NCBI GenBank assembly: GCA_000467715.1
Contig: AJFK01000724.1
Location: 62,001 to 126,000 of the forward strand
Source of the DNA: Hysterium pulicare CBS 123377
Lineage: Eukaryota > Ascomycota > Dothideomycetes > Hysteriales > Hysteriaceae
Reading direction: 5' to 3'
DNA length: 64,000 nucleotides
The position numbers and the translations under genes were made by a program. A model generated the notes under the pieces. That model had not been told where the DNA came from. It saw only the letters and a program-made list of their open reading frames with translations, and ran no database searches. This document shows, in pieces, positions 23,516-62,008 of this stretch (its first letter is position 1; each line of letters begins with the position of its first letter).

Positions 23516-26074
23516 TTAGGCAAGTATAATATACCGCTCTGATTCGTCCTCCGCATCGGCGCGAAAGAAACGCTCCATCGTATCCTCGGGGCCAGGGCGT
23601 ACCCTCAATCGCACAAGCGTTTTGCCGACGAGGCTGAAAACGCCAACCCGTTTGTAGAAACCCCGGAACCGGGCATCGCTTATATCTGCAGGTACAAGAA
23701 GCAAGCCAGAGACACCGTTTAGGGCATTGGTTACGTCGGGATGCAAGGCATGCTTACGATGGCTGCGTGTGTCAATGACAGGCAGGCACATGATAGGACA
23801 CGAATCAGACTCCTCCATGTCAATATCGTCGCTGCTATCCAGATGCACTATACCACAGAGAAGACCTCCATTCGCATCTGAGGACGAAGCAGTATCCGTG
23901 TCACTTTTACCGGCCTGAGGTACATCTGTTATAAGCTCGACCATGGCGTGACCTTGATCTGCGGACCGCGGTACTCCATCGTCCTCATGAATGATAGTAT
24001 TGCCAAATCCATCTGGCTCCATAACTACAAGAAACATACCAAGGTCGGTACTCCATTTAAGTTGGCCAGGGTGCAAATTCCCTTTCACGGCCAGAAAGGT
24101 GGTCTCGTGGAAACCATCGTCCAGGTACTCTTTCGGACCAAAGTGGTTCGCCTTGATCAAAGCCCCAGCTCTCAGTGGTGTAGGCATCATAATAGGCGCT
24201 TTCACAGCTGCCCAGGACCAGCTGGGCGCATTACGAATGCTTGGACGGCGGCCCTGTGGCTGCGATGGGGTTGCGGTTGGGGGAAATTTGGCGCCGAGTG
24301 TTTCGCTTCTTACGCCAGCGTCGACACTCCATACGAGCTGGGACGGCAATATGCTGCGCCATGTGCCGGCAATGTACGCATCCTTCAGTGACAACTCTCC
24401 GATGACCAGAGCAACACCGTAGATTGCAACTAGACGGTCGGAGTCAAAGGTGATGTTGGTGCGGCTATATGTCTCGACCAACCTGCTCCAAATGTAGTAC
24501 TTATCGAGACTTTCGGTTCCGACGGTACCTACATCAAATCTCCTCGTCGAAACTTCATCGCTTTCGCTGTCTGAAGACTTGAGATGTCTATCCCTCTCTA
24601 CTGTACTTCCTGCTTCGTTGATGGTGATGCTCTCGTCTTCCTCGCTGGGAGTCCAGTCTTCGGGGGACGCCCAGTAAACCGTGAGCTTGCTACCCTCGTA
24701 TATTGGTGGTCGGGTAGTCGCCGGTCGTTTCATGCGTCCCAATGATCTACCGTTATCTGCAATGAGCGAGATAAACCTGGTGTTCTCATCCTGCAAACCA
24801 GCTGGCAGACCCTTCGGAAACGTCTCACAGAAGTCACCTCCCTTGCACTCCCAAGCAACCTGCTTCCTCCCAAAATGAATGACGGCATTCGATAAGACAC
24901 GTTCTTGCAGGCACCAGGCGCGGCGCCCTAGATTAGAGTCGGACACCGTCTCCCTCCAGAAGTCGGCGGGTAGCAGAACGAACATCTCGTTTCCCAGACG
25001 CTCTTTGTATTGGCTGCAGTGCACTACCAAAGGGCTTATAGTCGCAGCCTTTCGATCGTAGAAAAGCCCTTCATAGCTATTCTTGGCACCATCCGCTGCC
25101 AACGTAAGATATGCGTTTGCGTAGAGTAGGCCCATCATAAAAGACTCCTTTTTCCAGTCTGCTTTGGAATTCTGGATAATGCAAAGCGAATCAATCCAAA
25201 GATACTTCACACCCAGACGTCTAGTAACGTCCACTGCATCTCGGAAGGTCATAGGTAGAGCATCGACTTCGATGCCATTGGCAGCAGCCTCTAATGTTAT
25301 GCCCCTGCCGTCTGCTTGCCACTCCAAGTTGGGATCGTATAGCCGACATGCCATGACGCTACCCCAGCAATGGCTCAACGTAATGTACGAGATCTTGTCA
25401 TCGAGCTGGGCTCGACTACGCAGTTGAATTTGGGGATCGCCAATTGCCCCCACATCTAGTATCCGGGCCATGGCGCAAGTCGTATCAGCATCTGGCGCGC
25501 GCAGACATTTGCAATTCTCTCGACAGTGAGCCATCCAGCCCTCCAGAAGATCCCAAGTTTCCTTTGAGGATGTGGTTTCTGATGCAACTTCATGGTCGAA
25601 GAGAGTCGGATGCAGTGATGCAGGCTGCAGCGCAAACAAAACGCTATCTGAAGCGACTCTGTACCTAATTTCCATGCGTCTCGCCCTAGTAATGCTTCCC
25701 ATATATATATTCAAAACCATAGAGTCCTCAGGGAACCGACCTTGATGGCCCATCAGACCAGAGTAGCGTTGGATGTAGAATTTGGAAAACCAGTCAGTGA
25801 TGTTGAGGGCGAGAACGTCTAGGCCACCATATTGCGTGGCCCTCTGCCATACTGTATGACAGATCGAACAGCCAGCTTCTGCTGCTTGCTGGCATTCAAT
25901 GGCTGTCGTGTGATGAATTCCTAGAGCACCATAATCATTGCCGCCCCATGATTCAAAGTCTGCGCGGAACATCCTACGACAGCTACTACATAATATAGAC
26001 CATGTTTTTGCTGCTGCTCCGGAAGCTTGATCGTCTAGAGTGGTTCGCTCCATGGAAGCTCGTAGGTCGTCCAT
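23516..26074 (-). CDS. HET-domain protein (heterokaryon incompatibility type)
   Basis: A single-exon frame of 852 residues. Residues about 229-370 form a HET domain: SYITLSHCWGSV, LPMTFRDAVDVTRRLGVKYL, WIDSLCIIQNSKADWKKES, and ANAYLTLAADGAKNSYEGLF. A pair of Cys motifs near the N-terminus (CSSCRRMF at about 29-36 and CSICHTVW) may bind metal. After the domain come RAWCLQERVLS and an acidic, Ser-rich linker, then a C-terminal half with the NAPSWSWAAVKAP motif common in long HET proteins. HET domains trigger growth arrest or cell death on non-self recognition; the partner here is unknown. No NACHT or repeat domain is attached. The gene is intact while its downstream neighbour is decayed. Confidence 0.9.
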   Translation of the reverse strand: MDDLRASMERTTLDDQASGAAAKTWSILCSSCRRMFRADFESWGGNDYGALGIHHTTAIECQQAAEAGCSICHTVWQRATQYGGLDVLALNITDWFSKFYIQRYSGLMGHQGRFPEDSMVLNIYMGSITRARRMEIRYRVASDSVLFALQPASLHPTLFDHEVASETTSSKETWDLLEGWMAHCRENCKCLRAPDADTTCAMARILDVGAIGDPQIQLRSRAQLDDKISYITLSHCWGSVMACRLYDPNLEWQADGRGITLEAAANGIEVDALPMTFRDAVDVTRRLGVKYLWIDSLCIIQNSKADWKKESFMMGLLYANAYLTLAADGAKNSYEGLFYDRKAATISPLVVHCSQYKERLGNEMFVLLPADFWRETVSDSNLGRRAWCLQERVLSNAVIHFGRKQVAWECKGGDFCETFPKGLPAGLQDENTRFISLIADNGRSLGRMKRPATTRPPIYEGSKLTVYWASPEDWTPSEEDESITINEAGSTVERDRHLKSSDSESDEVSTRRFDVGTVGTESLDKYYIWSRLVETYSRTNITFDSDRLVAIYGVALVIGELSLKDAYIAGTWRSILPSQLVWSVDAGVRSETLGAKFPPTATPSQPQGRRPSIRNAPSWSWAAVKAPIMMPTPLRAGALIKANHFGPKEYLDDGFHETTFLAVKGNLHPGQLKWSTDLGMFLVVMEPDGFGNTIIHEDDGVPRSADQGHAMVELITDVPQAGKSDTDTASSSDANGGLLCGIVHLDSSDDIDMEESDSCPIMCLPVIDTRSHRKHALHPDVTNALNGVSGLLLVPADISDARFRGFYKRVGVFSLVGKTLVRLRVRPGPEDTMERFFRADAEDESERYIILA

Positions 26075-43169: not shown

Positions 43170-45440
43170 TTACCTTGTTATCGTCTCTGATAGGATTTCC
43201 GCTGCCAAGGGGTCACTATCAGACCCGTCTTCAGAAACAGAGAGCGTGTCCAAATAGCAGCACTGCCCACAGAAAGGATTCGAAGGGTCTTGAGAGTGAT
43301 CATGTTCACTCGCAATCATATTATACAAGTTTTCGGCCCGAATCCTTTCTTCTGGCCTTCTTCTCAACATTTGCGAAACCCAATACAAGATCTCGTTATC
43401 AGAGTTCTCCGGTTCTTCGTTACGGAGCGCTTTGGCCCATGCCGTGGTTGAGGTCAGGTTTTGATAGAACCGGTAATTCTCGCCTCTGTCTTTTAGGAAC
43501 TTCCGCATATCGTCAATGGTGCGTTGCTTGATCACAGTGAACATCTCGAGGAATACGCAGCCCAGTGACCAGATGTCGGTGGAGCTGTTACGAGGCTCGT
43601 ATAGGGCAACCTCTGGAGCGCAATACACTAGGCTCTTCGCGGTATCCTCGGTTGTCGTGCTTCTTGTCAGGCTTTCCCAGTCCAGAGAGATTCCGAAATC
43701 GGTGAGATAGATGTTGCTTCCCTTAATGAGGATGTTTTCAGGCTTGATGTCGCGATGTCGTATCTTGGTCTCGTGGAGGTAATATAACGCTCCGGCAAGG
43801 CAGCCGAAAAAGCTTCGAAGTAGGGGTATGTTGGCAATGGAGTAGAAAGTTGTGAGATTGCAATCAGCCGCTGGGGCCATGATGATGCCAAAATATTTAG
43901 GATCTGTATAACTCCCAATCTGCAAAGCATTAGCAAAGGAAACTGACATCATGCGTGAAGTTAATAATACCAGCTCAACACAATGGACATGGTGAATTTT
44001 GCGCAAGATCTGCAGTTCGTTAACAAAACTCTCGAGATCTCTCTTTCGAGTCCGATTGCCTCTTCGGAACTTTTTGCGGGCGAATTCCCTTCGACTGAAA
44101 GTACTATAAACTTTGTCAACAACCCCAAAACCGCCGGCACCCAGCTTTTCGCGGACTTCATAAGGGAAGATTTCTTCTTCTGTGAAATGCACGTGACGCT
44201 TTTCACTATTCTCAAGGTCAACCGCCTTCGTTAGGACAAGCTGCTGCTTTTCGAGGAATTGTTCCCTAAACGAGTTGCCGAGTGTGTGCGGCAGAGAAGA
44301 TTTCGTGAAAGGAAACCAGAGGTCATTAATGCCTTGACCAAGTATATCATCAAGGAGTTGTAATTGATCAATGATGCGGAGGACAATGTAAAGTCTGGGA
44401 ACCTGACTCCAAGTAGCTCTATTGCTGTCGTAAAGTAATCGGGAGATCTGCTGACAGTCGAAATCGGTAAATTCATCCTCACAAATGCCACAAAAGTAAT
44501 CCACGAGCTTTGTCTTGGGCGTCGATATAGCCAAAGCAGTAAAATCGGCTTCGATAGTAGACTGTCCATTCGGTGCATCTTGAATCGAGGTGTATTGGGT
44601 TCCGATAACATTTGCTGACCACGATGTTTGGGAAAGTGTTTTGTCTTCTAGTCGACCTGGGATTTGGCTGGGACTTGTTGGTGCGATCATGGGCGGGTGC
44701 TGGCTCACATTGGCGGTTGGTTTTCGAAGGTACGACATTTGGTGTATGTTTATGCGATAGCCTCGTTTCGGGTGATATTCTTGAGACGCCATCTCATGCG
44801 CCTTTGTTACATCAAAGAGTTCAGTTGGTAGAGATGTAGGGAGTGTAAACTTCCGAAGTGGGCCAAGGCGGTACAATTCTGTCAGGTGAACAGCAACTAT
44901 ACAATCGACGCCGCTGTTGTACCAATTGACTTTTGTATCCAGGAGGTGGAAGACTCTGGTTGAAAAGTGTTTCGGTACTTCCGATGAGCACATCTTGAAG
45001 ATCGAATTTGATGTCCATCTGTCGACTTCTGCGATATTGGCAATGTATTCAGAAACCTGCTCTGGAGATGGAGCCCATTTGATAACGTCTAGAGTCCGAG
45101 GTCCACCAACACTTTTGAGGAACTGGAAATCCCCCTTCGTCATCTCAACGAAGCTTTCAGCTAGTTGGCCCACTGAAAACAGAGGCATTAGCATGGTGAT
45201 GAAATACACTTATTAATAAAAAAAAAAGGTGCAGTTACTTTCGACTCTAGCCTCCTGGTCGGGGATGGAAGAACCGGAGGGGTTATATTGAAGCTTTTCA
45301 AAGAGAGTAGCATGCTCCTGAGCCCATTTAAGCACACGTGCAGAGCCCTCAGCAAGGCAAAAATCTACGATCTTCGCAGCCTTCCGGATCTGTTTCCAAC
45401 CCGGCATTGGCGTATCAAGACGATGTTTAAGTATATTCAT
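43170..45440 (-). CDS. serine/threonine protein kinase, fungal type
   Basis: Three exons: 45239-45440, 43971-45172 and 43170-43919, about 717 residues. The N-terminal 370 residues have no known domain but are helical. The kinase domain begins with the Gly loop LGAGGFGVVDKVY, followed by the ATP-binding Lys in EFARKKFRRG, HRDIKPENILI as catalytic loop, LTDFGISLDW as the Mg-binding DFG motif, and YCAPEVALYEP as APE, then DIWSLGCVFLEM. All catalytic residues are present, so it should be active. An intron at 43920-43970 (51 nt, GTATTA...TTTGCAG) lies in the N-lobe between HHVHCVEL and IGSYTDPKYF; it is a multiple of three and stop-free. Substrate and pathway are unknown. The related kinase at 46383 is divergently placed. 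Confidence 0.88.
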
Positions 45441-46382: not shown

Positions 46383-49300
46383 ATGACGATGCCTACCAAC
46401 CCTACTTCGACATTCTTTGCTCCTATCGACAGAGACACCGGCACCGAGCTCTCCTCGAACCAGCAAGCAGAATGCCAATCGAACTATACTACAATAAAGG
46501 CATACATCGATGAAGTTGAAAATCACCCCGAGTTCCCTCTACAATGGTCCCGCAAGAAGCTACGCTGTTCTACCTCTGAGCTCCTGGGTTCCATCGAGAG
46601 CCTTGCCAACGATATAAGAAAGGTGGAAGGGGGCATACGTGGGATAATACAGCCCCATCAGGGCCTGGAGAGAGATGACAACACTTCCGCACCCACTGAT
46701 GGAGCAGTTCCATCGGCTGGGGCTATAGACCTGTCCAACGTTTCGATTCTCAACCCCGAGTTCTATCAGCGTGCGAACAACATTCTCCACGAGCTGATCA
46801 GCAGACTCATCGACGTTGGAAATCCTTTGGATAGTCAATCTGCTTCCAAAGTACACGATGGATCAAGTGTCGTGCGGGGATTCTGGGTTCCGGGAAGCAC
46901 CAGTAACAGCTCTGAAGCTAGCGCACCCACGACAAGTCTCACGAAGTCCCTTGACATAAGTAGTTCATCACGCACGGGCAGTAGTAGAGCATCCGATGAT
47001 CTGAATCAGAATACTGTTGGAAACGTCCCCCCAACCACGCAGCCTAGCAACACAGCTCGAGTAGCCTTCGATATTCCCCACCCAGGACCTGCTCCCGACA
47101 AGGGCCAACCAATACTTGAAGAGGATAGGACAAGGGCAACAAATGATTGGGTTATGGAATACCTTCGTGGAGGCTGGCTGGGTCTTGTTCCTGGGGTGGT
47201 CAACGAGCTGAGCATGTCGCATCTCTACAATACATCTGATGACGAGCTATCACCCGTGGGCAGTTTTCAGCGAGTTCAGCGGACCGACTCCGATGAAATC
47301 TCCAACCGTGGTGATGACGACCTTTGTCCACCACGGAAACCAAGACACTCCTTTCCAGTTCCGAACATGGCCTCCCGTATTATGGACAGAAACGGGAGTC
47401 AGGAGTTCGACAGGACACGTTCGGGATACTACTCGAACTATTCAGCACAAGACTTCTTCAAGACACCAAAGTCTATAATGAGCGGTGGCACTATTTTCTG
47501 TACACCAGACGATGGCTCTGTTACCCAAGTTCCGATTGGCCAATTTAAGTAAGTGATTCATCAAACTATATCCCAGTGGTCACTGAGGAAGTCTTTACGT
47601 GACAAAGAGAGCTTCCTGTCATCCTGGCTTTTTCTGATATTTCGATCCAAATACACTTTGCTGGGTGTTATAATTCTTAGGAGTTGGGCTGCACATCAAC
47701 CTCGTGATGATTCTTCTTACTATTCGCATACACGCTTGAGCTTGGCAATGTGATTATACTCCAGCAAGCACCGGAATTATCATACGCATAGCCACCGGTT
47801 ATTGAGTGTGTTGAAAAAGTGAAGCATAATCCCAACGAATTGTAACACCTACTGTATATCAGTGCTTTTCTATCTGATTTCCTTCTTATCTTCATCTTTT
47901 TCTTTTGGAGACGGTAGACCCGGGAATTATAGCAAACGTTGGGTCATGCCTTCATCATTATTCATTTATGGCAGTCAACCTTCTTCCGGATTAAGTTTAC
48001 TGTCGATCATTCTTCTTACACTTTCTCAGTAGTCCCTCGGCTTGGAATCGATACCTGCGAGAGAAAGGTCTTATACCTGATCCGTTTGACGAGATGAATT
48101 GGTCTGGGAGAGGCCAGCACGCAGAATATGGTGCGGACGAGGAAATGGAGGTGCCTCTTGCACTGGAAAAATCTCTAGGGCACAGTGCAACCGCGCTGGT
48201 AGAGAGCGTACGGTGCCGTCGCATTCGGCTTGCGCGGAAGACCGTAACAGTAAATCGCCGATTAAAAAAGGAAGAAGTGATCAAGGAAGTTGAGCATCTA
48301 CAACGTCTACGGCACCCTCATATCATTCGAGTCGTAGGAACATATACACTTGGAAGAAAACTATCCATACTATTGTACCCCGTGGCTGATTTCACTCTCG
48401 ATACATTCCTGGAATCCATCGAAGAAGACGATCTATCACGGGACGAACGATTTACGCGTTTGTTCTCAATATCGACGTTCATCCGCTGTCTTGCTAAAGC
48501 TCTATCTTATATTCATGAGAACGCGATGAAGCATATGGACATCAAGCCAAAGAACCTCCTCGTTCGAGATATGGGAGCCAGCACTATATGCAACCAAGGA
48601 ATGTACAAAATCTATATCGCAGACTTTGGCATCGCTCGTTCATATCGATCTGTGGAAGAATGCGACACCGAATCTCCTACCGCTTTCACTCGAATATATG
48701 CTGCACCTGAAGTTGTTGCCCAGGAAAGACGAGATCAGAGTGCGGATATCTTTTCGCTTGGTGCTGTATATGCGGAAATGCTCGCCGTAATTGCACAAGA
48801 AAGCACAACAGGTATCTCAAATTTGGACACACTAAGCAATATCCGCTTGAATAATCCAGAGGGGGATAAATCATATCACGCTAACTGCAACGAGATCCAA
48901 GCATGGCTTAGAAGTCTTTTCATTCCAAGCTACGGGTTTGAATCGCCCTTGACCTCCCACATTATCGAGCTGGCTGCTCGGATGTTGAGTGAAAACCCTT
49001 CGGATCGACCTTCCGCAAGTACTCTCATGCATAATATTCCTTTCATGGCTTTCTGCTGCGACGTCAATGGTGGCTCGGAACCGTTCGAGGCTGTCGATCG
49101 CTCTGCCAGTCGACAATTATACGACCGTTCTTTTGAGATTGCTGAATCGAACATGAGATTTTTGAGGTGTATGGTTGAGGGCTGTGTCAAAGTTTACTCA
49201 AGTCGGGACAAGCTTGAATACCATGAACAGGTACGTTCTTTAATCTTATGGTCTTATCATTCAAATGTATTGCTTTGGGTGTCATTCTTCGTCCTACTGC

Positions 49301-49727
49301 GGACTTCTATGCCCGGACAAGTCTGGATAGTTTTGCTGCCTTTCAAATAACCTCGAGGACGGGAACTTGCTTTGTCGCCTTGACCGACCTTACATCGGCT
49401 TTGTAGGCTGGCAGTAAAGAAGGTCGTAGGTTCAGATCTATCCTCCGGGAACGACGAATTATGACACCCGCATACATGAAGGCATCGAGGGTTACTGCGA
49501 ATTTTCACGCAAAACACAAACCCGATAATCTTACATGGCTAATTGTTGAGCAGCACGGCCATGGAGAATCTCTACAGCCTTCCGTACTGTCCAACAAGCT
49601 CAAACTTCAAGAAGATAGTACTGTCTACCGCCAAGATGGAGATAATGGAAAGCGATCTTCGTTAGATTATGAAGCTTACGAAAAGATGCTTCAAAAAGGA
49701 ATCATAGACAACTTGAGGTGGAGTTGA
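46383..49727 (+). CDS. serine/threonine protein kinase with long N-terminal region and C-terminal finger-like motif
   Basis: Proposed exons 46383-47548, 48030-49230 and 49482-49727, about 870 residues. The first 390 residues are Ser/Thr/Asp-rich and mostly disordered. The kinase domain opens PLALEKSLGHSATALVESV (degenerate Gly loop), then RLARKTVTV with the Lys, MKHMDIKPKNLLV as catalytic loop (HMD instead of HRD), YIADFGIARSY, and YAAPEVVAQERR, then DIFSLGAVYAEM. A CMVEGCVKVYSSRDKLEYH motif suggests a C2H2-like finger after it. The 481-nt first intron preserves phase (AA|T) and joins GQFN to SPSAWNRYLREKGLIP, a segment common before such kinase domains; still, the two parts could be separate genes with the kinase starting at 48094. 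The last intron holds a MITE. Confidence 0.75.
49278..49469. mobile_element. MITE, about 190 bp, inside a kinase intron
   Basis: Left end GGGTGTCATTCTTCGTC and right end GACGAATTATGACACCC are inverted copies differing at two positions. The inside has no open frame. It lies within the predicted intron 49231-49481 of the second kinase gene. Removing it leaves a 59-nt intron, the normal size here. It is related by its ends to the elements at 20971, 21609 and 16509, and is the best preserved of them. Confidence 0.75.
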
Positions 49728-49821: not shown

Positions 49822-51632
49822 TCATTTAGGGAGCGTAATGCTCAAGAATCGTTGCTCCAACACCGGCTTGTGGCTCACCATCAGATCCCACTCCAGTTGG
49901 CTCATTTGATCTTCTTCCAACACTAGATCTCCTTTCTTCCACCGAATCTTTCCCTGTCCATCTTGGATCTGCTTCAAAGAGAGCTCAGGTCCACCTGTCG
50001 AAGCCGCTGCTACACCCTCGACTGTCCAACCTTTCAGCGCGTTGCTGGAATATTCACCACCAGAGGGATTCTTTCCCTTCAAACCCCAGCGAATTCTGAC
50101 AGACGCATGGACCTTCTCGTTCGTGTCCTTTAAGGGCTGATGAGGCTCGTATGGCACACCAGTGTAATGGTCGTAGCGGACATACTCATGCGGGGTGCGC
50201 GTTAGGGGGTCGGCAAGCTTGTAAAAGCTCTTAAATTCGTTGTGAATAGGACCTGGAATGAATTAGTATGTGTTGATGAAACACTCTTGTTTACTGCTCG
50301 TGAACCCTCTCGGTAAATTCTCCCAAGTGTAGCTTCACTCTAGAGCATTTCTTCTTACCACAACTCCAGGGTATCTCCGGTTCTTCTCCCTGCGGCTTAT
50401 AGTATTGTCTCTTCAAGATATCGTGGTCGAACTTTACTCCTAGCAATTCCAACTGATTAACCATCCATGCAAGCGTTATATCCGCCGCACGAGTGTCGTC
50501 ATAACTGCCGCCCACATCAGAATGGGCTCCCGCAAACCACACTTGTGTCAAGGTTTGCCCCTTCCTTGGATTCGGCAGTTCCCAGATAGTAGGCATGAAG
50601 GGTTTCCTGTCTTCGTCGAGAGCTACAGCATGGATAGCATGGTCGACTGCTTCTGGGACGGATGTATCAACAAAAGCATAGTCGATAGATTCGTGGTTCA
50701 TCTTGTTGAAGAGTCCCAGGCGGGGAACACCCAAAGATCCTACAGTTCGAGTCAGCATCATGTCAAACTATGCGCAACGGTATCAGAAGAGTCGACATAC
50801 CAACTGTATCCCATACTGCCACGGCTTTGATCCTCACACCAGGGGTCGTCATCCCCAAATCAACCAACTTCGCCACATAATTCTTCTTACCCTCGACATC
50901 AAACAAATTGTACTTCTCATCCGCATGGCCAGGGAATGGATCGTTGGCAAACGGGACCTTCCAACCTTTCTTTTGCTGATTCTCCCAGTCCGCGAAAATG
51001 GTGTAGAAATGCATCATGCCCACCGTCGTCAACAATCCCACATCATTAATAAAGCTAGCAATGCTGCGCGCTGTGAAAGCGCCTCGGGAGAACCCGATAA
51101 GATAGATCTCGTCGCCGATAACACCATCCCCGTCAACATCTGCGGCTGACCCATTCCAGTTTGCTGCGACAAACTGATATGCTTCGCGAATATGCTCGGC
51201 AAGACCATAGCCGGTAGCTCCGCCGGCGAGTTTGTCTTCGAAGTTCTGGGAGCCGATTCCCGCTTGGTAGTAGGTAATTTGTGGGATGGGGGGCGCAGAG
51301 CTAAACATAAGATCAGTACGCCGTATAGCGCTGAATGTAGTCCCATGAGAAAAGATGGCTTACTTAGTATCGATTTGTTTCACGCATCGACCTATGCGTG
51401 TGACATTCGATGGTGTTTGTAGGGAGACTTTCCCAGTCAACTCCGCGGCAAGGGCTTTGACGGGATCGAGAGTGATTGATGTGCCGGTGTTGGCATCGAG
51501 CCATGTTCCTAGAGGAGAGGAAAAGGATCAGCATTTGAAGACCCGCGAGTCATTGCTCTGGACTTGGAAAACTAGCTTACCATCGCAACAAACTACCAGC
51601 CTTTTCATGGGCAATTTCGAAGCTGCTGTCAT
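49822..51632 (-). CDS. DUF2235 alpha/beta-hydrolase (Tle1-like phospholipase domain)
   Basis: Five exons: 51581-51632, 51364-51508, 50801-51300, 50359-50739 and 49822-50252, about 502 residues. RLVVCCDGTW opens the domain, as in most fungal DUF2235 proteins. EIYLIGFSRGAFTARSIASF carries the G-x-S-x-G nucleophile elbow with the serine nucleophile, and VWFAGAHSDVGGSYDD carries the His and Asp region of the catalytic triad. The remaining strands (YYQAGIGSQ, IKAVAVWDTVGSLG) match the family, which is also found as the catalytic domain of bacterial type VI Tle1 phospholipases. In fungi the role is not established. No signal peptide is seen, so it is probably cytoplasmic. The exon 4 donor is GTAAGAAG after WSCG; a later GTAAAC donor breaks the frame and was rejected. 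Confidence 0.88.
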
Positions 51633-52344
51633 CTTGCTGTTGTTTAATCGACGCTTCTGATATATGAATAGAAATCGACCAAGCAGATGGAATCTCCAAG
51701 ACTTCAATATGAAAAGCAAAACAACCCGCAAGTAAAGCCAAATTTGATGTTAGCAGCATTCGTATTACACCTCTATTCTTATACTCCCCCTCCATTCCTT
51801 GCCCAGCTTGCCGTTGATAACATCGTTCTTGGCCCTTGGTCCCGCGTGAGCTTCAGCTGCTGCTGAACTCAGCTCGGCTGAGGCTAGACCTTTTGCGGCG
51901 CTCGCTTGAGGTATGCTTTGAGCACCATTCGATCGAGGGCGTGCGGAATGAGCCTGTGATGAACGGTTTGGGCAAATCGTAGTTCCCGTGTGCTGTGGCG
52001 GGCTGAAGGGTTCGGGGGGATGAGATCAGCTGGGGGGATTTTGGATGGGTGGGCTTGCTTACGGCTGGGCGGTGGAGGATGTGGGCCTCAGGCACGATTC
52101 AAGCTGTACAAGGTTTCAATGGTAAGCCCACGCGAAAACATCACATTATGTTAATCGGAGAGGTATAGTGGGAGCATATCTATTGAATTCGTGACGTAGG
52201 AAGGATTCCCATCTCAGTCGACAACACACTGAAGAAACCCGAGATGGCAAAACAAATAACCCTGTCATCGAATCGTAGAGATTATGTCCCTTCTATTAAC
52301 GATATCGTGAGCTTCTCCCTACCGTCCACATTCAGTTTGACTCA

Positions 52345-52408
52345 TAAGGTGATGCTATGTACACTGGAGCTCTGTGCACTAAGCTCCAGTGTAGATAGCA
52401 TCACCTTA
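52345..52408. repeat. near-perfect inverted repeat, 27-bp arms
   Basis: Arms 52345-52371 and 52382-52408 are complementary except at one position, with a 10-base loop. Weaker pairing continues outward for about 10 more bases. As RNA it would form a very stable hairpin. It does not sit at a gene end that would suggest a terminator. Confidence 0.8.
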
Positions 52409-52664
52409 CGAGCCAAAACTAACGCATGCGATTCAGCAGAAAAGCTCCAAGTAATCGTCCGTACATAACATAAAGAAAAGACAAAGGAAATTGGAGCCAT
52501 GGCTTGACTTTGACAAAATGGTAATCGAACTCGAATCCTTGACCATGATATGGCGGTTCAAACTCGGGGATGGCCCGAAACGTATACTCAGTGTTGTCGA
52601 GAAAACGTATTGAACGAAAAGCGGGCGGCCCGATGGAGGCAAAGCTTGAATTGAGCTCGTATTT

Positions 52665-52713
52665 CTCTTTGTCCTGCATGGAACCTTCACAAGATTCCAC
52701 GCAGGACAAAGAG
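52665..52713. repeat. near-perfect inverted repeat, 19-bp arms
   Basis: Arms 52665-52683 and 52695-52713 match as reverse complements except at one position, separated by 11 bases. It lies about 260 bases after the 27-bp-arm hairpin. Confidence 0.78.
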
Positions 52714-53007
52714 TCACATACCGGCCTAGATTTGTACCGCACGCCAGGAGTCTGTAAATAAGACGTGGAACAGTTTTATGATGAGCTCGTTTACTGAAAG
52801 TGTTACACGATTTGTATGCAGATGCCCGGCGCTAATCATAGTGCAGATTTGACTTGTCCTGAAGTAGATCAAAAGCAGCCACATTGAAGTAGCTACCTTT
52901 CCGAACATATTTGCTGACGTGGTTGATGACTTTCTCTCGGAGTAGGCGAGTGGAGATGTGGAAGATTATAGGTGGGAGCTTCTTGCCCAACAGCTAGCAC
53001 GAAAGCC

Positions 53008-54143
53008 TTAACACTTGCGACGTCTACTCTGGATCAACTCTTCCGAGTTAGAGGGATGAGCTTTGCGGATGTGCTTCTGAAGATTGTCGTTTCGCGAAAA
53101 GGTTTTCTCGCAGTCCGAAGCTGGGCACGAAATAGAGACTTGTTGATGGCGGGTTCTCATATGTCGTTTGAGGTCCTCCATTAAACCAAATGGGCGCTGC
53201 GTGCAACCCTTCACTAAACATGGGTAACGACGATTATGCTTCCGATTGATATGCTTCCTATCACATGGTGTCAGTACAGTTAGTCTAAAGTAAAAGGTGG
53301 CTCAGTCGAGAAACTTACGCTAGTTGGAACCTCTTCTCGAACACCTCATCGCAAGCGGTACAGGCATGCACTTGGCTGGATGCTCTGTAGGTACTCTCCC
53401 TTGGGGAAAAGCTTGTCGAGGAGGATCGGTGAGGAGGTGTGCTATACCGTAAAGTTGGAACATGTTCATATCCCTGGGCAGTAACAGAGATTATACCTCC
53501 CCTCGATGATGATGATGAAGATTCGGAGAATGAGGAACCATCGCTCGAAAGTAAGGAGTCGGAAGTATCGATAGAAGGATGCGAGAGGTCGGTGTTGGAG
53601 TCATCAGTTGAGTGAGCCGTAAGTTGTTCCAGCTCGTGTTCGGTAGAGATTGGATGTTCAGGAACAAGGAAAATAACAGGATTCAGATTATATTCAACCA
53701 AGAAGGGGCTGACATATTTAGGGAGCTGATGACCGAGATTGTCGTCTAAACTATGGTCCTGATAGTCACTCGGAATTTGGGTTGCGCGAAGACAGTCAGC
53801 CTTCGCGCAATCAACCTAATGTCTTGGAACAGGGTGTTGTTACGGCAACTCCTCCCAACTTCGGTGCTGCCGCTGTTCACGAGCACTTCGAAACACGTGA
53901 AAGGCTTTGAAACGAGTTGTTCTTTCAACCTTACGCGAAAAGTAGCGTAGCCCAAATTTGAGCTTGGAACAAGAGGGAGAATGATCAAGGACGAAAGACT
54001 TAGAGCACCCGCTGTGGATGGTTTGCCCCTCACCAAGCGCCGTGAAGGCGTGGCTATGGGATGGGAAGCTGGCAGTGCCCTTGGATGCAGAGCACAGCTT
54101 GAGAGAGAAGTACTTTTATAGACAGTGACTTGATGGAAGGCAT
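53008..54143 (-). CDS. three-finger C2H2 zinc-finger protein, copy A
   Basis: Exons 53008-53257 and 53319-53815 are well supported (61-nt intron, GTAAGT...GATAG). A first exon 54114-54143 (MPSIKSLSIK) is proposed because its start context is shared with copy B and its phase fits, but the 298-nt intron makes this tentative. About 258 residues. The N-terminal part is acidic and Ser-rich, with VEYNLNPVIFLVP matching copy B. Three fingers follow: CTACDEVFEKRFQLAKHINR with its final KH, CLVKGCTQRPFGLMEDLKRH, and CPASDCEKTFSRNDNLQKHI. They suggest DNA binding in the nucleus. It is divergent from the membrane-protein gene at 54623. Diverged paralog of the gene at 56886. Confidence 0.72.
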
Positions 54144-54622
54144 ACCGTGGCGTGGGGGCCGATGCCGTCGCCAAGGTTTTGTGGCGCGGGACCGGTGAAG
54201 GCTAGACCAATGACGCTCCCAAGCAAAAAGGCTGTTCCATGAGATGGGCTTGCCCTCAGAAGCGTACCGAAGGGCAAATGAAAGCGAAGTTGAGCTTGCT
54301 GAACTTCACATCCGCTTGCGTATGTGGAAGAATGTCAATAACCTTAGACCAATCGCTTAAGTACGAGAACCAGACACAGGGGGTTGATCATCAGGAATCA
54401 ATCCCTGTCCTAAATCGATGCTCCAGTCTCTGCCTCCAATCCTGACCAGAAAGTATGCCTCAAGAAAACAGTGAATGTATTTTAGGGGTGGTTCATGCCC
54501 TTTCTTGGAAGCATCATGCTCATAGAAAGCAATACTTTTCTCATATCAAACCACTACTGTATCACATAATGTTCTATTGATACATTTACTTTGAACCGAA
54601 TTCACTTTTACCTTCAGAAAGA

Positions 54623-54965
54623 ATGCCACCTCGTCCGTTTCTAAATCGCACTTCTGGTCCCCTTCAGCCCCCGACCAACCCACCCGGCATATCGAACGTC
54701 CAAAATCTTGCATTCAATATCCTAGCTGTTCTATTCGCGGTGGCATCGATCCTCGTTGCATACCTTCATTTTCGACACGAAAAACGACGCGCAAGTGTGG
54801 TTGTTATGGAACAGAGAGGCATACAAGTAGATCGACGTAAGTACTCCGTCTTACAAGCTATGCTAGGAGCCAATGTCCTTGCTAACAATGTGCGGCGATT
54901 TAGTACCCGTACATCCTATTGCGACGCTAACGGCGGACGCTTCTGTAAATTCTGATCAAGGCTGA
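54623..54965 (+). CDS. small single-pass membrane protein, copy A
   Basis: Exons 54623-54836 and 54904-54965 give about 91 residues; the 67-nt intron has GTAAGT, a GCTAAC branch site and TTTAG. Unspliced, the frame runs 110 residues. One transmembrane helix (NILAVLFAVASILVAYLHF) is followed by a basic H-E-K-R-R stop-transfer segment. The N-terminus is Pro-rich. The same pattern (FDILTVSFAAASLLVAFLHF, then H-Q-K-R-H) occurs in the gene at 59886, which has nearly the same length. No named family was recognised. It is a neighbour of the divergent C2H2 gene, with about 480 bases between the starts. Confidence 0.68.
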
Positions 54966-55567
54966 GGAAGGGGCCAGTTGGTGTTTGTGGTGGTGGTTTA
55001 CTTACGTCGGAGCTGGGGGCTGAAGGATGTGGGCCTTCGGCAGGACATACACGATAGGTGTCATCAGAATAGTTTATTATGAACTTCACTTGTTTCCGGG
55101 CCATGATCAGTCGGGCAACTTCATTTATGCCCTGCACCAAGGCGAAGTCATCTTTGTAGACTTAGAGGACAGAAGATGATAGGAGCAGGCCCACCCTAGC
55201 ACGAGGAATTATGAGACCTATGTATGTTTTGGTTGATGGACCTTATGAGTTCCAGTCCATTCGTTAAATTATCTAACAATTGTGTTGTCAAAGGCCTTTA
55301 CAGAAGAAAAGAAGAGAAAATCCAATATTAGCCATATCCGCCAAACGCTGCCATATCCAAAAAAAATAAAGAAATAACAATTATGTGCTGGGGTATCTGC
55401 AGTTGTGCTAGTCTCTTTCTCCAAGGTGTTGAAATGTTGATTGAAGAGGAGAAGAAGGGTGGAACGCCCCATTGAGGGGTTTTATACAAGATTAACCAGT
55501 TCCAATACTCCCTTTAGATTGGGAGGTGGCCTCATTCACTGAGGTATATTGTGCTTCTGGCTCGTCT

Positions 55568-55738
55568 GGCCTGGTGTTTCTATACCATCTGTGGTGTTTG
55601 GCTCCACAGCCTGGCAAGTATTAGGCCATCTCGGTGTGGCTCTTAGCTCTGGCAAGTCTTATGCCATCTCGGTTTGGCTCTCAGCCCTGGCAATTCTTAT
55701 GCCATCTTAGTTTTGGCTCTCTAGCCAGGCTCCATTCT
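55568..55738. repeat. minisatellite, about 38-bp unit
   Basis: Units begin GGCAAGTNTTATGCCATCTC at 55613, 55651 and 55689, with a more decayed unit before them. The word GGCTCT recurs in each. Confidence 0.75.
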
Positions 55739-55866
55739 TTTGGGCTCTCGTTATAGCGGTGATTGATTGTGCCATTCTCTGGCAAGCCTTGATGTTTTTA
55801 GCCTCGATTTGACGGTATTCTTTGGCTCTATGGCCTGGCCTCTTTGGGGCCCTTCGCACTTTGTGT

Positions 55867-56010
55867 GCGGTATTGAGTGGCTCAATAGCCTGGCCTCTCT
55901 GGCCCTTCGCTCTTTATATGCGGTATTAAGTGGCTCAATGGCCCTTCGCTCTTTGTATGCGGTGTTAAGTGGCTCAATAGCCTGGCCCTTCTGGCCTGCG
56001 CTCTGCGGCG
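55867..56010. repeat. minisatellite, 39-53-bp unit
   Basis: Three units begin GCGGTRTTRAGTGGCTCAAT at 55867, 55920 and 55959. The middle unit lacks a GCCTGGCCTCTCTG segment present in the first, and the last is slightly changed. Confidence 0.75.
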
Positions 56011-56885
56011 CGAATTCAAAGCTCCTCTAGTTTGTGTACCAAGTATGTTGTATTGAGATTTGACAGGAGGTAGGTAGGCTTGGATGAAATCAAGTCTGTG
56101 AGCGCTGTCCGGGCTCTTACGTTGTTGAAATGTTAATTGAAGAAGAGAAGAAACAGCAGGTTCGTTTGAGATTGCCTCTTTCGCTATCAGTGATGCCACT
56201 ATTCAAATTGAGCAGGATACGACTCACATGAGTGCGCAAAGCGCCTTGCGTAGAGCTTGACTAAGTGCCGACAATTTCGGAGCTCTTCATCTTCCAGGTC
56301 GGAAGTGTCCTTCGAGGCCATCAGCTGCTTGCTTAGACCGTATAACTTGAAGCTGATCTGCGACCTTGTGGCAGTTCCCGTCTCCCCGTATGACGGATGG
56401 TATTGAAAAGAATGATCGAAAAAGAAACCTGAAAAGACAGTGGAAAGGAAAACGGAGCCATGGAGTGATTTCAACAAAACTGCAACCTAACTCGAACCCC
56501 ATACACCATGAAAAGAAGCGAATAGCAGCGGCAGTGTCGGCAGTGTTGTTGTGTGGTGAGGATTCATGCCGCAGCCATGAAGCTGCGGGTCGAGACTTCC
56601 AGACTTCAATCAAGAATCTAGGAAGTTGACAAGCCTTTTTGAGGCGGATTCGAGCCTTTCAGGCTTCGATAAGGTATAGAAAAACCAACATATGGTACGA
56701 TACAGAAAAACAGCACGACTGCAATTTGCTGGACCACTGCGCTAGCTATGCTCACTAATCATGGTGTAAATTGCTGAGCTCTGAAAATATGAACAAAGCA
56801 ACCATAAAAAAATCCTGACGTTTCTCCCAAAAAAGGTAAGTATTACAGCAGTTATATGAATGGATCTCTCTTAGGAATGCGGCTA

Positions 56886-57946
56886 TCAAGTAGAGCATGG
56901 TTGGTTAGCGCGGTGAGGGAACGCATCTTGCGACGGATGAGCTTTGCGGATATGCCGTTGGAGGTTGTCATGTCGCGAAAAGGATTTCCCACATTGGACG
57001 ATTGGACAAGCTATGGATGATGTTTCCGCAGCTGATGGTTTGTGACGAGCTCTGATATGCCGTAATAGATCAGCTCTTAAACCAAAGGGCGGTCGCGAGC
57101 ATTGATCGCATTGGAAACGGCGATGATGCTTTCGATTGAAATGCTTGCTATATCATGAACACATTAGTATCGCCTCTCCACGTCAGAGCGAGTCACGGTG
57201 CTTACCTCAGCTCAAACTTCTTCTCGTAAACCTCATTGCATTCAGCACACGAGTATGTCCGAGAGGAGGCTCTGCCATAAGATGAGCCTGGTGACGTGCT
57301 TAAAGTGCTAGTGTTGCTAGTGTTGCTAGAAGCACCACGGCTCACGTCGAGTTCAGATGGGTTGGCTGGCAGAGAGTTGGCTGCATTTTCGGGACAACGT
57401 AATGAGGAAGTCGAAGTTGGAGATGGATCGTTCGCGTTTCCCTCTACGGAGGGCGACTTTGAATGCGGCGGGATAGACCATTGATGGCTGTGAGGTGGAG
57501 AGATACTGTTGTAAGGGATACCAGGTTCATGAGCTCTATCAGATCCTAGCTCATGTTCGGAAGACGGTGGTTGGATTGCATTTTCAGCGGCATAAAGGTA
57601 CGGAAGCCAAATAATGGGGTTCAGATCAATTTCGACCTCCCATGGGTCGACATATCCAGAGAGTTGATTGCTAGAATTGTTGTCCAAACGATGGTCCTGA
57701 CGGTCGCTCGAAATTGGGGTTGCGCGGAGACGATACGCCTTCGCGCTGGGGCTTTTCTGCTAAGATAATCGATGATGAAGTTTGAAAGGAAGTGCTGCAA
57801 AGTTTCTCCCTTCACCAAGCGCCACAGGGGCGTGGTTACGGGGAGATACTCCGGGGGGTGGAGTAGTGGTCCAAAGATTCGTGAAAGAGGGTGACGAAAG
57901 CTGATATTTCAATCATTTACGAAAGTCTTACAGGATTCGGAGGCAT
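56886..57946 (-). CDS. three-finger C2H2 zinc-finger protein, copy B
   Basis: Exons 56886-57147 and 57206-57759 are well supported (58-nt intron, GTAAGC...TATAG). A short first exon 57932-57946 (MPPNP, then a GTAAGA donor) is in phase 0 and shares its CCACGGNATGCC context with copy A. About 276 residues. An N-terminal segment EIDLNPIIWLPYL and a Ser/Pro-rich middle precede three fingers: CAECNEVYEKKFELRKHFNR with its final KH, CDQCSRPPFGLRADLLRH, and CPIVQCGKSFSRHDNLQRHI. Spacing and the intron inside the first finger equal copy A, so the two are tandem duplicates. The second finger has lost the two-residue insert seen in copy A. It is probably nuclear; targets are unknown. Confidence 0.72.
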
Positions 57947-59885
57947 GCCGTGGGGGCTTAACTGCGTCAGCTTTCTGCAGCCACAATACTTCCCAGCCGA
58001 CAACCGGTGAAGGCTGTGACCAATCAAAATTGGACCGTCTGCATAGCCTCGTAGCTTTCCGGAATTGATTGAAGGCTACAGTCAATCAGCTAACAAGCGT
58101 ACAGAACTTGTGCTCCTTTGGTATTTTCTAGGTCTTTCTAGCACAGATCACGTCTTACAATATGCGGCCGAACATCCAACATTGAACAATCGTCTGAGCC
58201 TTAAAAACGAAAGCTAGAATGCAGCATGCGGCATGCCTCTGCTCATAACACGTGGTGGCCATTAGGGATCGTCCCCTAAACTCAGGTGGTTTACGGCTAC
58301 TATTCGAATCAGTTAAAGCCTCTGCTGCCAAACCCATCTAGTCTTTGTTAGACTCTACATAGATAAAACCTAGATGTGAATCTTTTTCCTACCTATGGAA
58401 GTAAGTGTAGCAAGAGGAGAGCTATGTTGCCACGTTAGCGGTAGCAAAAGCACTTTATACTCAAGGTAAAGTCCAAGCCGACTATGTGAAAGAGGGGAAC
58501 GGGATATAGCAACATTATGGGAGGGTCCGAAAAGTAAAACTTCCACCTTCCAGTAAGCCTATGCGCCCAAAGGCCAATAGCTGTACGCGCACGGATAGGG
58601 TATAGATAGATGAGATCTCGGGCGCATGGCATTGCATGCCGCAGACAGCGCCTATGACTGCCTGTCCACGTAAATTGGCATACTATTCTAAAACGTGAAA
58701 CTGAATCTCGAAGAGAAAATATGCGAAATCTAGCCAACGAGCAACGTCACATCCTCGTCTTCTCAGCGAAACCTCGACGCGTCTAGCTTGCCAAACTTTC
58801 CAACTCTTGTATTCCACATCTTGCCAACCCCACGGCCCAAAAGGCGTGTGAGTGAGGTGATTCGAAAGAAGGTCGGAGCAAGAACAGTGTCTGTGAATTT
58901 AGCTTCTAGGGAGGTTGGGCCAAATTTCAGAGCGAAGTTGATGATGAGGACCCAATTTCTTGAGGCTTTCATGGGGTATCGCAGGATGCTGCGATGCTGC
59001 ATATGTCATCTAATCGCAGCCACAATTGAGCCTAAGGCTTACCGAGTGGAGCTTACAATCAGTCACAAGGCACTTGACAAGTAAGCCTTATGCGAGGACA
59101 CGCGATTGTATCAAATAAGAGAGGTAGCTCGAAGCCGGGTTGCCACTTAACAAATTAACCATGCACATAACAAAGTGACCATGCCACAACACAACCATCA
59201 AACACCAATGGAGTAGGAGCCCTATCGATTCAGCAAATCCCGTTGTTGCGGATGCGGGACAAGGCTCCGGGGGACAACTGCATGTTCCATAGCCAACCTA
59301 TACAAGAGCCAATTGGAGGCCGATAGATAATGTAGTGGCTGCTAGCGGACTGCTAGCGGACAGTGCCGAAGCGCTAACGGGATGCTCCATTGACCTACGC
59401 CTCGCCTCGTACTTCCCTCTGTGCTATAATAACAACAATGCAGGTGATGATTAAGTACGAAAAGGTATACGATGATAAGATACGGACTTACATGTGTGTC
59501 ATATTCAGTACTGCCAACACCCCCGAAGCTTCCGTTTGATAGATCTATGCATCCTAGCTGAAAAAATGTGAGCAGTGATGAAAGGTAACATGTCTGTCTT
59601 ACTGCCTAAGTCTGGGTAATCAATGCTAGAAGTAGCGATTTAAGTTAGCTCAGTAGGTATAGGTGTACACCGACCTTGCGACTTTAAGATGATCAGATCC
59701 ATCATCCGTCAGAGCCAGACCGAAAAATAACATCTATGATATCGAAACCCGGGCGGCTGTGCAGGAAGGCACGCCTCCACAGGACCCCTCTATAAGTCTT
59801 AAAACCCCGGGGCACCGTTAGTAAATTAGTTGCCCTTGCTAAAACTCACCTGGTATATCGTGTCAAAATTGTAAGACTCCTCACG
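57947..59885. other. intergenic, no gene seen
   Basis: About 1.9 kb with short frames on both strands (for example 58435-58737 and 58763-59002 antisense), none recognised. The corresponding gap in copy A is only 0.5 kb, so this stretch probably expanded after the duplication. A small TTAGGG...CCCTAA-like inverted word lies near 58263-58281. Confidence 0.4.
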
Positions 59886-60155
59886 ATGTCTTCGCCCATT
59901 ACCAACTCCACCTTCTCATTACCTTCGCCGATGAGCATCGCTTCTGGTGGATCCAAACTACAAACACTGATGTTCGACATCCTGACGGTCTCATTCGCCG
60001 CAGCATCTCTCCTAGTCGCATTTCTACACTTCAGGCACCAGAAACGGCATTTGCTTGGCGATCTCGAGAACGGTGATATAGAATCACCGCACCCAAACGT
60101 TGAAGACATACACCTGCGTAGGGGCTCCATGGTCAATACTTACTGCCAGTCCTAA
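59886..60155 (+). CDS. small single-pass membrane protein, copy B
   Basis: An 89-residue frame. A Ser/Pro-rich N-terminus is followed by one transmembrane helix (FDILTVSFAAASLLVAFLHF), a basic R-H-Q-K-R-H segment, and an acidic tail (GDIESPHPNVED). It is a clear paralog of the protein at 54623, but without that gene's intron. After two adjacent stops at 60153-60158 the same frame stays open for 90 more codons to 60431; no good splice pair joins it, so it is left out. The nearest gene is the divergent C2H2 copy B. Confidence 0.6.
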   Translation: MSSPITNSTFSLPSPMSIASGGSKLQTLMFDILTVSFAAASLLVAFLHFRHQKRHLLGDLENGDIESPHPNVEDIHLRRGSMVNTYCQS

Positions 60156-62008
60156 TAGTTGTTAGACAACTTGACACCTACACAACGAAACATCTCGGTA
60201 GAAACTCACACACTCGAAGGTCCCAATAATCCTCACCAGGGCAGCAACTATACGGCGGAGCATGGAGGACTCGCTTCTCAAGCTAGAAATGACGCATCGA
60301 GCAACCGAGTCACAGTTTCGAAGCAACTTGGCGACCGGACGAATACCATGTGTTCAGAACATCGTCCAAGGAAGGACCTCGAAAAAGACATGGCTTCCCA
60401 CACCACTGAGTTGGATGAAGCAAGCTCATAGCAAGAGGTTATGAATTGGGATAGAGAGGCACATTGCTGGAGGACGATAAAGCTCCGGACGATTGTGACG
60501 ATACCACTGAGGAAGTATGGAAGGGTTGATGAATGGATTGTGTGTGTGAGAGGAGACTGGAAATTAGAAAAGGAATATGGCTTTCTCGATAGATGCCAGA
60601 AAGGACTTTCTCATTACATGGAACCCACTTCAGCGACTCGCAAGTCGGTTTACGTGGCTGAATATCTTTAGTTCTTGTGTTACTCTCTGTAGAGTGAATA
60701 GTGTGGACGGGACCCACGGTCAGCAAACCAGCCGACCGATACTACTAATGTGACGGATCTCCGGTAAGATCCAGTGCTTTGTCTAGACAAGCCGAAGCAA
60801 AAGCTCAAGTAGGCCTACGCGGATTTGGCCGACACTTCGCTATGATCTCCAAGTCTCAGACGTGGAATGTGACACACGGAAACGCGCTGTAGAGCAACGC
60901 GGAGAAGCGCCGGTGCTACAGAAAAGTACATCTGCTGGCCTCACGGAGTACAGTACTGTAGACGCCGTATTCTGTCGTACTGGATATATTTATGGTGTTG
61001 GAAGAGGAGAAATTGTGTGGTGGTTATGGGTGGCCTTGTGGTCGGATGATCGGGTTGTGAATGGCTTCGTCGCGGAAATCCAGGCACGATTGGCAGCCGG
61101 CCACTCGCAGGAACAGGCTTAGCGGTTACTCCGTCCGTTGGCCTGAGGCTGTCGCGAAAGTGGTGAAGGTTGTTGATTGGCGTAGCGTCGGAGTCTGTGC
61201 CCCATTTCAAACTTCTCAAACGCGGAGGTCGTTCGGGGGCCTGGTCTCCCGCCGAATGGATGGGTTGGCCCGCAATCTGATCGCAAAAGGAGTCTCACGG
61301 CTGCATCTGCATCGCCGCTCTCACCATGCCTCTCAGCGGCCGCCATGTCAACAATAAACGCCCTGACTGCTGTTTCTTTGATTCTTTGTGACCTTTGACC
61401 ACTCGTTGCACTGTCGTTGCATTGTCTCGCGCCCGAGTCCCACCCTCTGCGCCGCCCGTCACTCATTAAGGCCACAATAGCCATTGAGCTCCTGCAGCAT
61501 TCATTCGACACCACTTCGAAAGAGCGACTTACCTCCGAAGATTTCTTACCAACATTGACTTACGACCGAGGATTTACAGCTGCCAGAGGCCCTTCTGCTG
61601 ACGACGCAGATTGGAGCATTGAGCGTGTCAAACAGTCTGCGCCCCAGGAATATACCTCAAATCATGCACATTCTCTAGCACTTCCGCACTCGACGTAAAC
61701 GTACATCTCACACACTCCCTTGTCACGCTTCAGCCTCTCCTTGGATATTCAACAAAACCCTACCCTGTCACTCTTTCACCACTTCAACTGCTGGTGGTAG
61801 ACAGCTGGACTGTTACCACAACCCAGCAAGACGACTCACCGCAATCGCGGTACTATTCGTGCGCGTCTGGACTTCGGATACGACAACGCGCATCTGTCAC
61901 TCTTTTACCTCGAACTAGGACGACGGAAATCAGCTGGGCTGGATTAGCCCCTCTCCCATAGCCGTTGACCGGATAAACCCACCTTAATAATACCAAACAA
62001 TATTCACA
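60156..62008. other. intergenic and probable long 5' leader of the channel gene
   Basis: No gene is supported. 60159-60431 is open in the same frame as copy B of the membrane protein. Overlapping frames between 60862 and 61698 are shadows of each other. 61700-62008 is C/T-rich and probably promoter and 5' leader. Confidence 0.4.

What the first reader, a model, noticed from the sequence alone, without database searches (positions are those of the whole stretch)
51900..60155. Duplicated two-gene module: C2H2 protein plus small membrane protein
Four anchors keep the same order in two units: the GGATGTGGGCCT block (52075/55025), a TPWL-type block (52500/56460), the C2H2 genes (53008/56886) and the divergent membrane-protein genes (54623/59886). 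The proteins have diverged greatly, yet finger spacing, intron position and membrane-helix design are kept. A DNA-binding protein paired head to head with a tiny membrane protein, kept through duplication, could be an undescribed functional module.
Basis: partly seen in the sequence, partly recalled or inferred. Interest (0 to 1): 0.72.

Follow-up and report, generated by a model that had tools for sequence, protein, structure and literature searches.

The report
Old tandem duplicate of two genes
A fungal chromosome carries two very old neighbouring copies of a stretch holding a zinc-finger regulator gene and a tiny membrane-protein gene; both genes look real in both copies, but that the two proteins work together is not shown.

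Summary
The duplication is real. Two units in the same order carry a C2H2 gene (minus strand) and a divergent small single-pass membrane-protein gene (plus strand). The C2H2 proteins align over 254 columns at 43% identity, with an N-terminal part whose next genome match is only E 0.27. The membrane proteins match at protein level only, 26/52. Fingers and membrane core show coding constraint.

Three supports are weaker than claimed. The 'TPWL' block shows no sign of coding. The finger-1 intron also sits at the same place in three other C2H2 genes. The head-to-head spacing is about 2.1 kb in unit 2 against 0.8 kb.

Is the pair a functional module? The only further credible membrane homologues found (two, contig C161) flank a C2H2 gene, one of them divergent from it, as here; by chance about 1-4%, post hoc. 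But that C2H2 gene is of another subfamily, and two of the nearer C2H2 relatives have no such partner in 7.9 kb each. No other fungal genome could be searched.

Best reading: an ordinary, very old tandem duplication of two adjacent, separately constrained genes. A functional module remains possible.

The parts
53008..53815 (-). C2H2-1 gene, readable part (248 aa; exons 53319-53815 and 53008-53257, intron 53258-53318, phase 2 inside finger 1); start exon unresolved
   Evidence: Pfam zf-C2H2 E 1.2e-11
56886..57759 (-). C2H2-2 gene, readable part (271 aa; exons 57206-57759 and 56886-57147, intron 57148-57205, same place and phase); start exon unresolved
   Evidence: Pfam zf-C2H2 E 1.6e-9; 43% identical to C2H2-1 over 254 columns
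54623..54955 (+). mem1: 110-aa single-pass membrane protein, helix about residues 30-48, one N-glycosylation sequon (N8) before it, basic stretch after it
59886..60155 (+). mem2: 89-aa single-pass membrane protein, same design (helix about 29-47, sequon N7)
53671..53808 (-). 5' block of the C2H2-1 readable frame, 73% identical to 57609-57746, conserved without third-position excess
57609..57746 (-). 5' block of the C2H2-2 readable frame, partner of 53671-53808
54191..54211 (+). upstream element of C2H2-1: ACCGGTGAAGGCT followed by CCAAT (54207)
   Evidence: 13-mer occurs 4 times in the genome
58003..58024 (+). upstream element of C2H2-2: ACCGGTGAAGGCT followed by CCAAT (58020)
54026..54060 (.). 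conserved block upstream of C2H2-1 (77% to 57808-57842)
57808..57842 (.). conserved block upstream of C2H2-2
52472..52538 (.). 'TPWL' block of unit 1: conserved DNA, no codon periodicity
56433..56499 (.). 'TPWL' block of unit 2
52064..52097 (.). GGATGTGGGCCT block of unit 1
   Evidence: E 4e-4
55012..55045 (.). GGATGTGGGCCT block of unit 2
55427..55990 (.). dispersed-repeat sequence in unit 2: 55427-55487 and 55848-55989 match C42, and 55848-55990 matches C404 and in part C189
58438..58541 (.). second dispersed repeat, between C2H2-2 and mem2 (C116, C507)

Best explanation
A stretch of about 3-4 kb holding two adjacent divergent genes was duplicated in tandem long ago. One gene codes for a three-finger C2H2 protein, most likely a DNA-binding transcription regulator with a Ser-rich disordered middle. 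The other codes for a small single-pass membrane protein, most likely in the secretory route or plasma membrane, with a short Ser/Thr/Pro-rich glycosylated N-terminus outside and a basic tail in the cytosol. Both genes were kept by purifying selection in both copies. The two regulators keep most base-contacting finger residues (9 of 12 identical, one more K/R; positions by the Zif268 rule, recalled), so they probably bind overlapping DNA sites. They share an ACCGGTGAAGGCT + CCAAT upstream element, so they are probably expressed under similar control and differ mainly through the fast-changing middle. Unit 2 carries dispersed-repeat sequence that lengthens it. Shown: duplication, readable gene structures without their starts (splice sites by sequence only), constraint. 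Inferred: DNA binding, membrane topology, shared targets. The neighbourhood of the two genes is explained by inheritance of their order and needs no joint function.
For: Collinear blocks; C2H2 match over 254 columns, with an N-terminal part whose only other genome match has E 0.27; membrane-protein match at protein level only; third-position excess in fingers p=5e-4 and membrane core p=1.6e-3, dN<dS; shared 13-mer + CCAAT upstream of both C2H2 genes; no shared word beyond chance in the rest of the two intergenic stretches, longest 11 nt against a shuffled mean of 10.1 (14 of 50 shuffles reach it); C286 and C107, two of the nearer C2H2 relatives, lack the partner in 7.9 kb each.
Against: At an unlinked locus (C161) two further homologues of the membrane protein flank a C2H2 gene, one of them divergent to it. 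I count 45 C2H2 loci over (a lower bound), which gives about 1% by chance (my arithmetic); 150 loci would give 3.7%. That is more linkage than inheritance of one duplication predicts. The C2H2 middle part shows no third-position excess (60 of 169 differences, p=0.3), nor do the first 48 codons (15 of 43, p=0.47).
Confidence: 0.66

Rival explanations
1. A functional two-gene module: the C2H2 protein controls the divergent membrane-protein gene, or the membrane protein senses or holds back the regulator, and linkage is selected for. C161 is a second, older instance whose C2H2 partner has diverged or been exchanged.
For: The four credible members of the membrane family lie at two unlinked loci, each holding C2H2 genes. 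A profile made from one pair alone finds the other pair and nothing else below E 0.7 among 3705 held frames (window pair finds C161 at 1.4e-5 and 2.4e-5; C161 pair finds the window at 3.4e-7 and 6.6e-4). Order is memA(-) C2H2(+) memB(-) in C161 and, read on the minus strand, mem2 C2H2-2 mem1 C2H2-1 in the window.
Against: Single-sequence matches between the two loci are weak (E 0.007 to 0.11), and with C161 memA as query C474, C161:167792 and C170 score as well as mem1. The C161 C2H2 is no relative beyond general finger similarity: 30% over 81-86 columns; its best matches are C174, C377 and C507, and the window pair is absent at E<=0.01. Its intron lies before the fingers, as I read it. memB has no C2H2 finger pattern in the 5.8 kb to its right. 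No shared mem-side element. Divergent spacing is about 0.8, 1.1 and 2.1 kb, measured to the readable or presumed starts.
Confidence: 0.2
2. One or both copies are decaying: the frames are left over from a duplication and no protein is made, which would explain the missing start codons.
For: No in-frame ATG in the readable C2H2 exons before the fingers; middle part evolving with little constraint; unit 2 carries dispersed-repeat sequence.
Against: No stop in either readable frame as joined; fingers at dN/dS about 0.15; GT-AG splice sites at the same place; membrane core conserved with third-position excess. ATGs at 54143 and 57946 with phase-0 donors could supply short first exons (my reading).
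Confidence: 0.08
3. The pair is part of a larger unit, for example a third gene under the TPWL and GGATGTGGGCCT blocks, and the duplication carried a small gene cluster.
For: Both blocks are kept outside the two named genes in both units.
Against: No clear codon periodicity in the TPWL block in any frame. Two frames there (52419-52742 and 56199-56477) find only themselves in the genome at E<=1; the other frames were not searched. No RNA family match in 51500-61000.
Confidence: 0.06

Closest known systems
Fungal C2H2 zinc-finger proteins (Pfam PF00096 zf-C2H2); in this genome C286:40611, C107:180317 and C132:2322
   Same: Three fingers, last finger close to SRxDNLxxHxxxxH, phase-2 intron at the same place inside finger 1 (my reading)
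   Different: N-terminal part of the window pair has no credible match elsewhere in the genome; no membrane-protein neighbour in 7.9 kb around C286 or C107
Small single-pass membrane proteins at C161:198001-198312 and in the open frame C161:202857-203234 of the same genome
   Same: Core IL..FA.AS..VA.LH.R or close to it, one sequon before the helix, basic residues after it
   Different: N-terminal extension that looks like a signal peptide (my reading); C2H2 neighbour of another subfamily
Solved C2H2 domains (WT1, GLI, ZNF410, TFIIIA)
   Same: Finger sequences match, best E 1.7e-12 to WT1 chain 6b0r_D
   Different: General finger similarity only; no claim of orthology

Membership tests
C2H2 zinc-finger transcription factors | Pfam zf-C2H2 above the curated cut-off in both copies | tested here: met
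   44.7 and 38.1 bits against 25.2
C2H2 zinc-finger transcription factors | sequence-specific DNA binding and control of transcription | not testable with these tools
   needs binding and expression experiments
Tandem segmental duplication | several homologous blocks in the same order and strand | tested here: met
Conserved functional gene pair (module) | same two families linked at independent loci or in other genomes | tested here: inconclusive
   C161 has the membrane family beside a C2H2 gene of another subfamily; C286 and C107 lack the partner; no other fungus searchable
Conserved functional gene pair (module) | shared regulatory elements serving both genes | tested here: inconclusive
   the only shared upstream element lies on the C2H2 side; exact-word test found none elsewhere, which would miss short or degenerate sites
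Known family of small fungal membrane proteins | match of mem1 or mem2 to a curated Pfam family | tested here: not met
   none over cut-off; best DUF2484 for mem1, 15.3 against 25 bits; none for mem2

The most novel reading that the evidence does not exclude
A recurrent fungal gene pair in which a lineage-specific C2H2 regulator is kept divergent to a glycosylated single-pass mini-membrane protein with a conserved IL..FA.AS..VA.LH.R helix. It exists as at least two unlinked loci in one genome, with the regulator exchanged between loci while the membrane partner is kept, forming an undescribed membrane-to-nucleus or self/non-self control unit.
Probability: 0.12. Interest if true: 0.65.

Novelty: new member of a known kind. 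Interest (0 to 1): 0.3.

Why it matters
If the linkage held across fungi, it would name a new small-membrane-protein family tied to C2H2 regulators and give it a testable function. As it stands it is a documented example of an old tandem duplicate in which two unrelated neighbours were both kept, and it marks a membrane-protein family without a Pfam match (four credible members in this genome) worth following.

Tried and rejected
Relatives elsewhere: an alignment of the four membrane proteins gave 91 pattern matches in viral contigs and 23 in bacterial/archaeal genomes; none was confirmed. No other fungal genome is held.

Other membrane relatives: with C161 memA as query, further weak hits (C474, C161:167792, C170, C137 and others, E 0.001 to 1.3) overlap in E-value with the window's mem1 (0.008). 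In profile scans of the DNA held, those listed scored E 1 or worse with the four-sequence core and with a profile of the C161 pair, while the window proteins scored 3.4e-7 and 6.6e-4. I treat them as chance. The core was chosen by me after seeing all four proteins.

Third gene in the unit: rejected for lack of codon periodicity and of homologues of the two frames searched.

Shared bidirectional promoter: not supported, longest shared words no longer than in shuffles (14, 22 and 28 of 50 shuffles reach the observed length in the three comparisons).

Papers: three searches, listings and abstract starts only. Two hits for C2H2 / small transmembrane / divergent / filamentous fungi (neither holds 'small transmembrane protein'), one for C2H2 / Pezizomycotina / expansion / ankyrin / intron position, four for divergent pairs. 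Titles and abstract starts of these seven describe no such pair.

Rows left out: fifteen loci that repeat DNA of the four known membrane genes were left out; the window, L016 and the rest held were kept (3705 frames). The scan covers only the DNA held, not the genome. In one search weak blastn hits off the collinear line (E 2.6 to 9.2) were ignored.

Structure prediction was not run: for three fingers and one helix it would not separate the explanations.

Full report
SETTING. The window is G000:C485:62001-126000 of an unnamed 37.2-Mb, 596-contig assembly. A HET domain, spliceosomal introns and a C2H2 gene that reads like an ankyrin-repeat protein (my reading) point to a filamentous ascomycete (inference; the HET link to such fungi is recalled).

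OBSERVATION. Blastn between the two halves gives collinear plus-strand blocks: 52064-52097/55012-55045, 52475-52548/56431-56511, 53051-53267/56932-57157, 53328-53353/57215-57240, 53631-53647/57548-57564 (weak), 53671-53808/57609-57746, 54026-54060/57808-57842 and 54191-54211/58003-58024 (four weak hits off this line, E 2.6 to 9.2, were ignored). The membrane genes show no DNA match. Their proteins match 26 of 52 residues, and in the genome each finds the other at E 4e-8 and 2e-8. The C2H2 proteins align over 254 columns at 42.5%. The N-terminal parts alone match at 51% over 72 columns, and a query of the first readable exon has no other genome match better than E 0.27.

GENE STRUCTURE. C2H2-1 reads 53815 to 53008 with an intron at 53258-53318 (61 nt); C2H2-2 reads 57759 to 56886 with an intron at 57148-57205 (58 nt). 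Both introns are phase 2 inside finger 1. Neither readable part has an in-frame ATG before the fingers. ATGs at 54143 and 57946 could start short first exons that splice in phase 0 (my reading), but this needs RNA. The intron position is not special: the C2H2 genes at C286, C107 and C132 have it at the same place and phase, by my reading of three of three examined.

CONSTRAINT. NG86 counts on protein-guided alignments: fingers dN 0.36, dS 2.35 (near saturation); N-terminal part dN 0.67, dS 1.11; its middle dN 0.91, dS 1.47; membrane proteins pN 0.39, pS 0.86 overall and pN 0.22, pS 0.91 in the 32-codon core. Third-position differences: fingers 53 of 108 (p=5e-4), membrane core 22 of 38 (p=0.0016), whole membrane protein 63 of 135 (p=9e-4). 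Against this, the first 48 C2H2 codons (15 of 43) and the middle (60 of 169) show no excess. The 5' block is conserved as DNA in a way that codon constraint does not explain: in the coding frame differences are 16/8/13. The TPWL block is 4/7/7, and the frame through it in unit 1 does not find unit 2 as a protein at E<=1, so it should not be read as protein. Protein-guided alignment leans towards third-position excess; the membrane match used for the core is ungapped.

UPSTREAM ELEMENT. A perfect 13-mer, ACCGGTGAAGGCT, followed a few bases on by CCAAT, lies upstream of both C2H2 genes (54191, 58003). The 13-mer occurs 4 times in the genome, two of them here; the other two (C134, C158) were not looked at. 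Beyond it the intergenic stretches share no exact word longer than shuffles give.

MEMBRANE PROTEINS. mem1 and mem2 have one hydrophobic helix, one NxS/T sequon before it and basic residues after it, which suggests an N-outside, C-inside protein (inference from the positive-inside rule, recalled). No Pfam family passes its cut-off.

THE TEST INSIDE THE GENOME. Two further members of the membrane family lie on C161 (198001-198312 and the open frame 202857-203234, both minus; 43-51% identical to each other). Single-sequence matches to the window pair are weak (E 0.007 to 0.11), and some unrelated-looking hits score alike. But a profile made from either pair alone finds the other pair well ahead of everything else in the DNA held: 1.4e-5 and 2.4e-5 one way, 3.4e-7 and 6.6e-4 the other way, next best E 0.7 or more (3705 frames). 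Between them, on the plus strand, is a three-finger C2H2 gene (Pfam E 7e-17), so memA and this C2H2 gene are divergent about 1.1 kb apart, as in the window. Over I count 45 distinct C2H2 loci (a lower bound that includes C161 and the window's two). The chance of one within 2 kb of a 5.2-kb span is then about 1% (my arithmetic; one search gives 0.7% for 28 loci and 3.7% for 150). This is post hoc. Against the module, the C161 C2H2 is of another subfamily: best matches C174, C377 and C507, window pair absent at E<=0.01, 30% over 81-86 columns. Its memB has no C2H2 finger pattern to its right in the 5.8 kb read. Two of the nearer relatives of the window C2H2 genes, C286 and C107, have no membrane-core match with E below 0.7 in 7.9 kb each.

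CONCLUSION. The step from kept side by side to functional module is not supported beyond one suggestive second locus. A tandem duplicate keeps its neighbours by default, and the intron position is shared by other C2H2 genes. The mechanism I commit to: two paralogous regulators with near-identical base contacts and similar upstream control, and two paralogous small membrane proteins, each kept by selection of its own, with order inherited.

NOVELTY. A new member of a known kind. The membrane family has no Pfam match (mem1 and mem2) and deserves a survey in fungal genomes; three paper searches (listings only) showed no description of such a pair.

Noticed in passing
window 52336-52417 and 52665-52713: Two strong palindromes (41-nt arms with no spacer, 88%; 23-nt arms with 3-nt spacer, 91%) in unit 1, on either side of the TPWL block; possibly relics of small mobile elements.
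   Followed up: no
window 50291-51308, minus strand: Two adjoining frames of a Tle1-like (DUF2235-type, name recalled) hydrolase, Pfam PF09994, covering profile positions 41-188 and 183-287; to the left of unit 1.
   Followed up: partly
window 43170-45209 (-), 48094-49350 (+) and 23516-26074 (-): Two protein-kinase genes and a HET-domain gene in the same window. The second kinase has a C2H2-like stretch near its end, by eye (CMVEGCVKVYSSRDKLEYH).
   Followed up: partly
window 53671-53808 and 57609-57746: Start of the readable C2H2 frame conserved at DNA level with most differences at first codon positions (16/8/13); the frame shifted by one also reads similar in both copies but has a stop in copy 1. 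May be an untranslated leader or a short upstream frame.
   Followed up: partly
window 623-1315 and 2371-3144, plus strand: Two frames whose C-terminal helical stretches look alike by eye (R-rich, RMRI.RLER), possibly another local duplicate.
   Followed up: no
window 55427-55990: Dispersed-repeat sequence beginning with TGTTGAAATGTTGATTGAAGAGGAGAAGAA (second copy, 93%, at 56123), like a decayed LTR; parts recur on C42, C404 and C189.
   Followed up: partly
window 55113-55197: Short stretch just right of the unit-2 GGATGTGGGCCT block recurs on C596 at 76% (E 1e-6).
   Followed up: no
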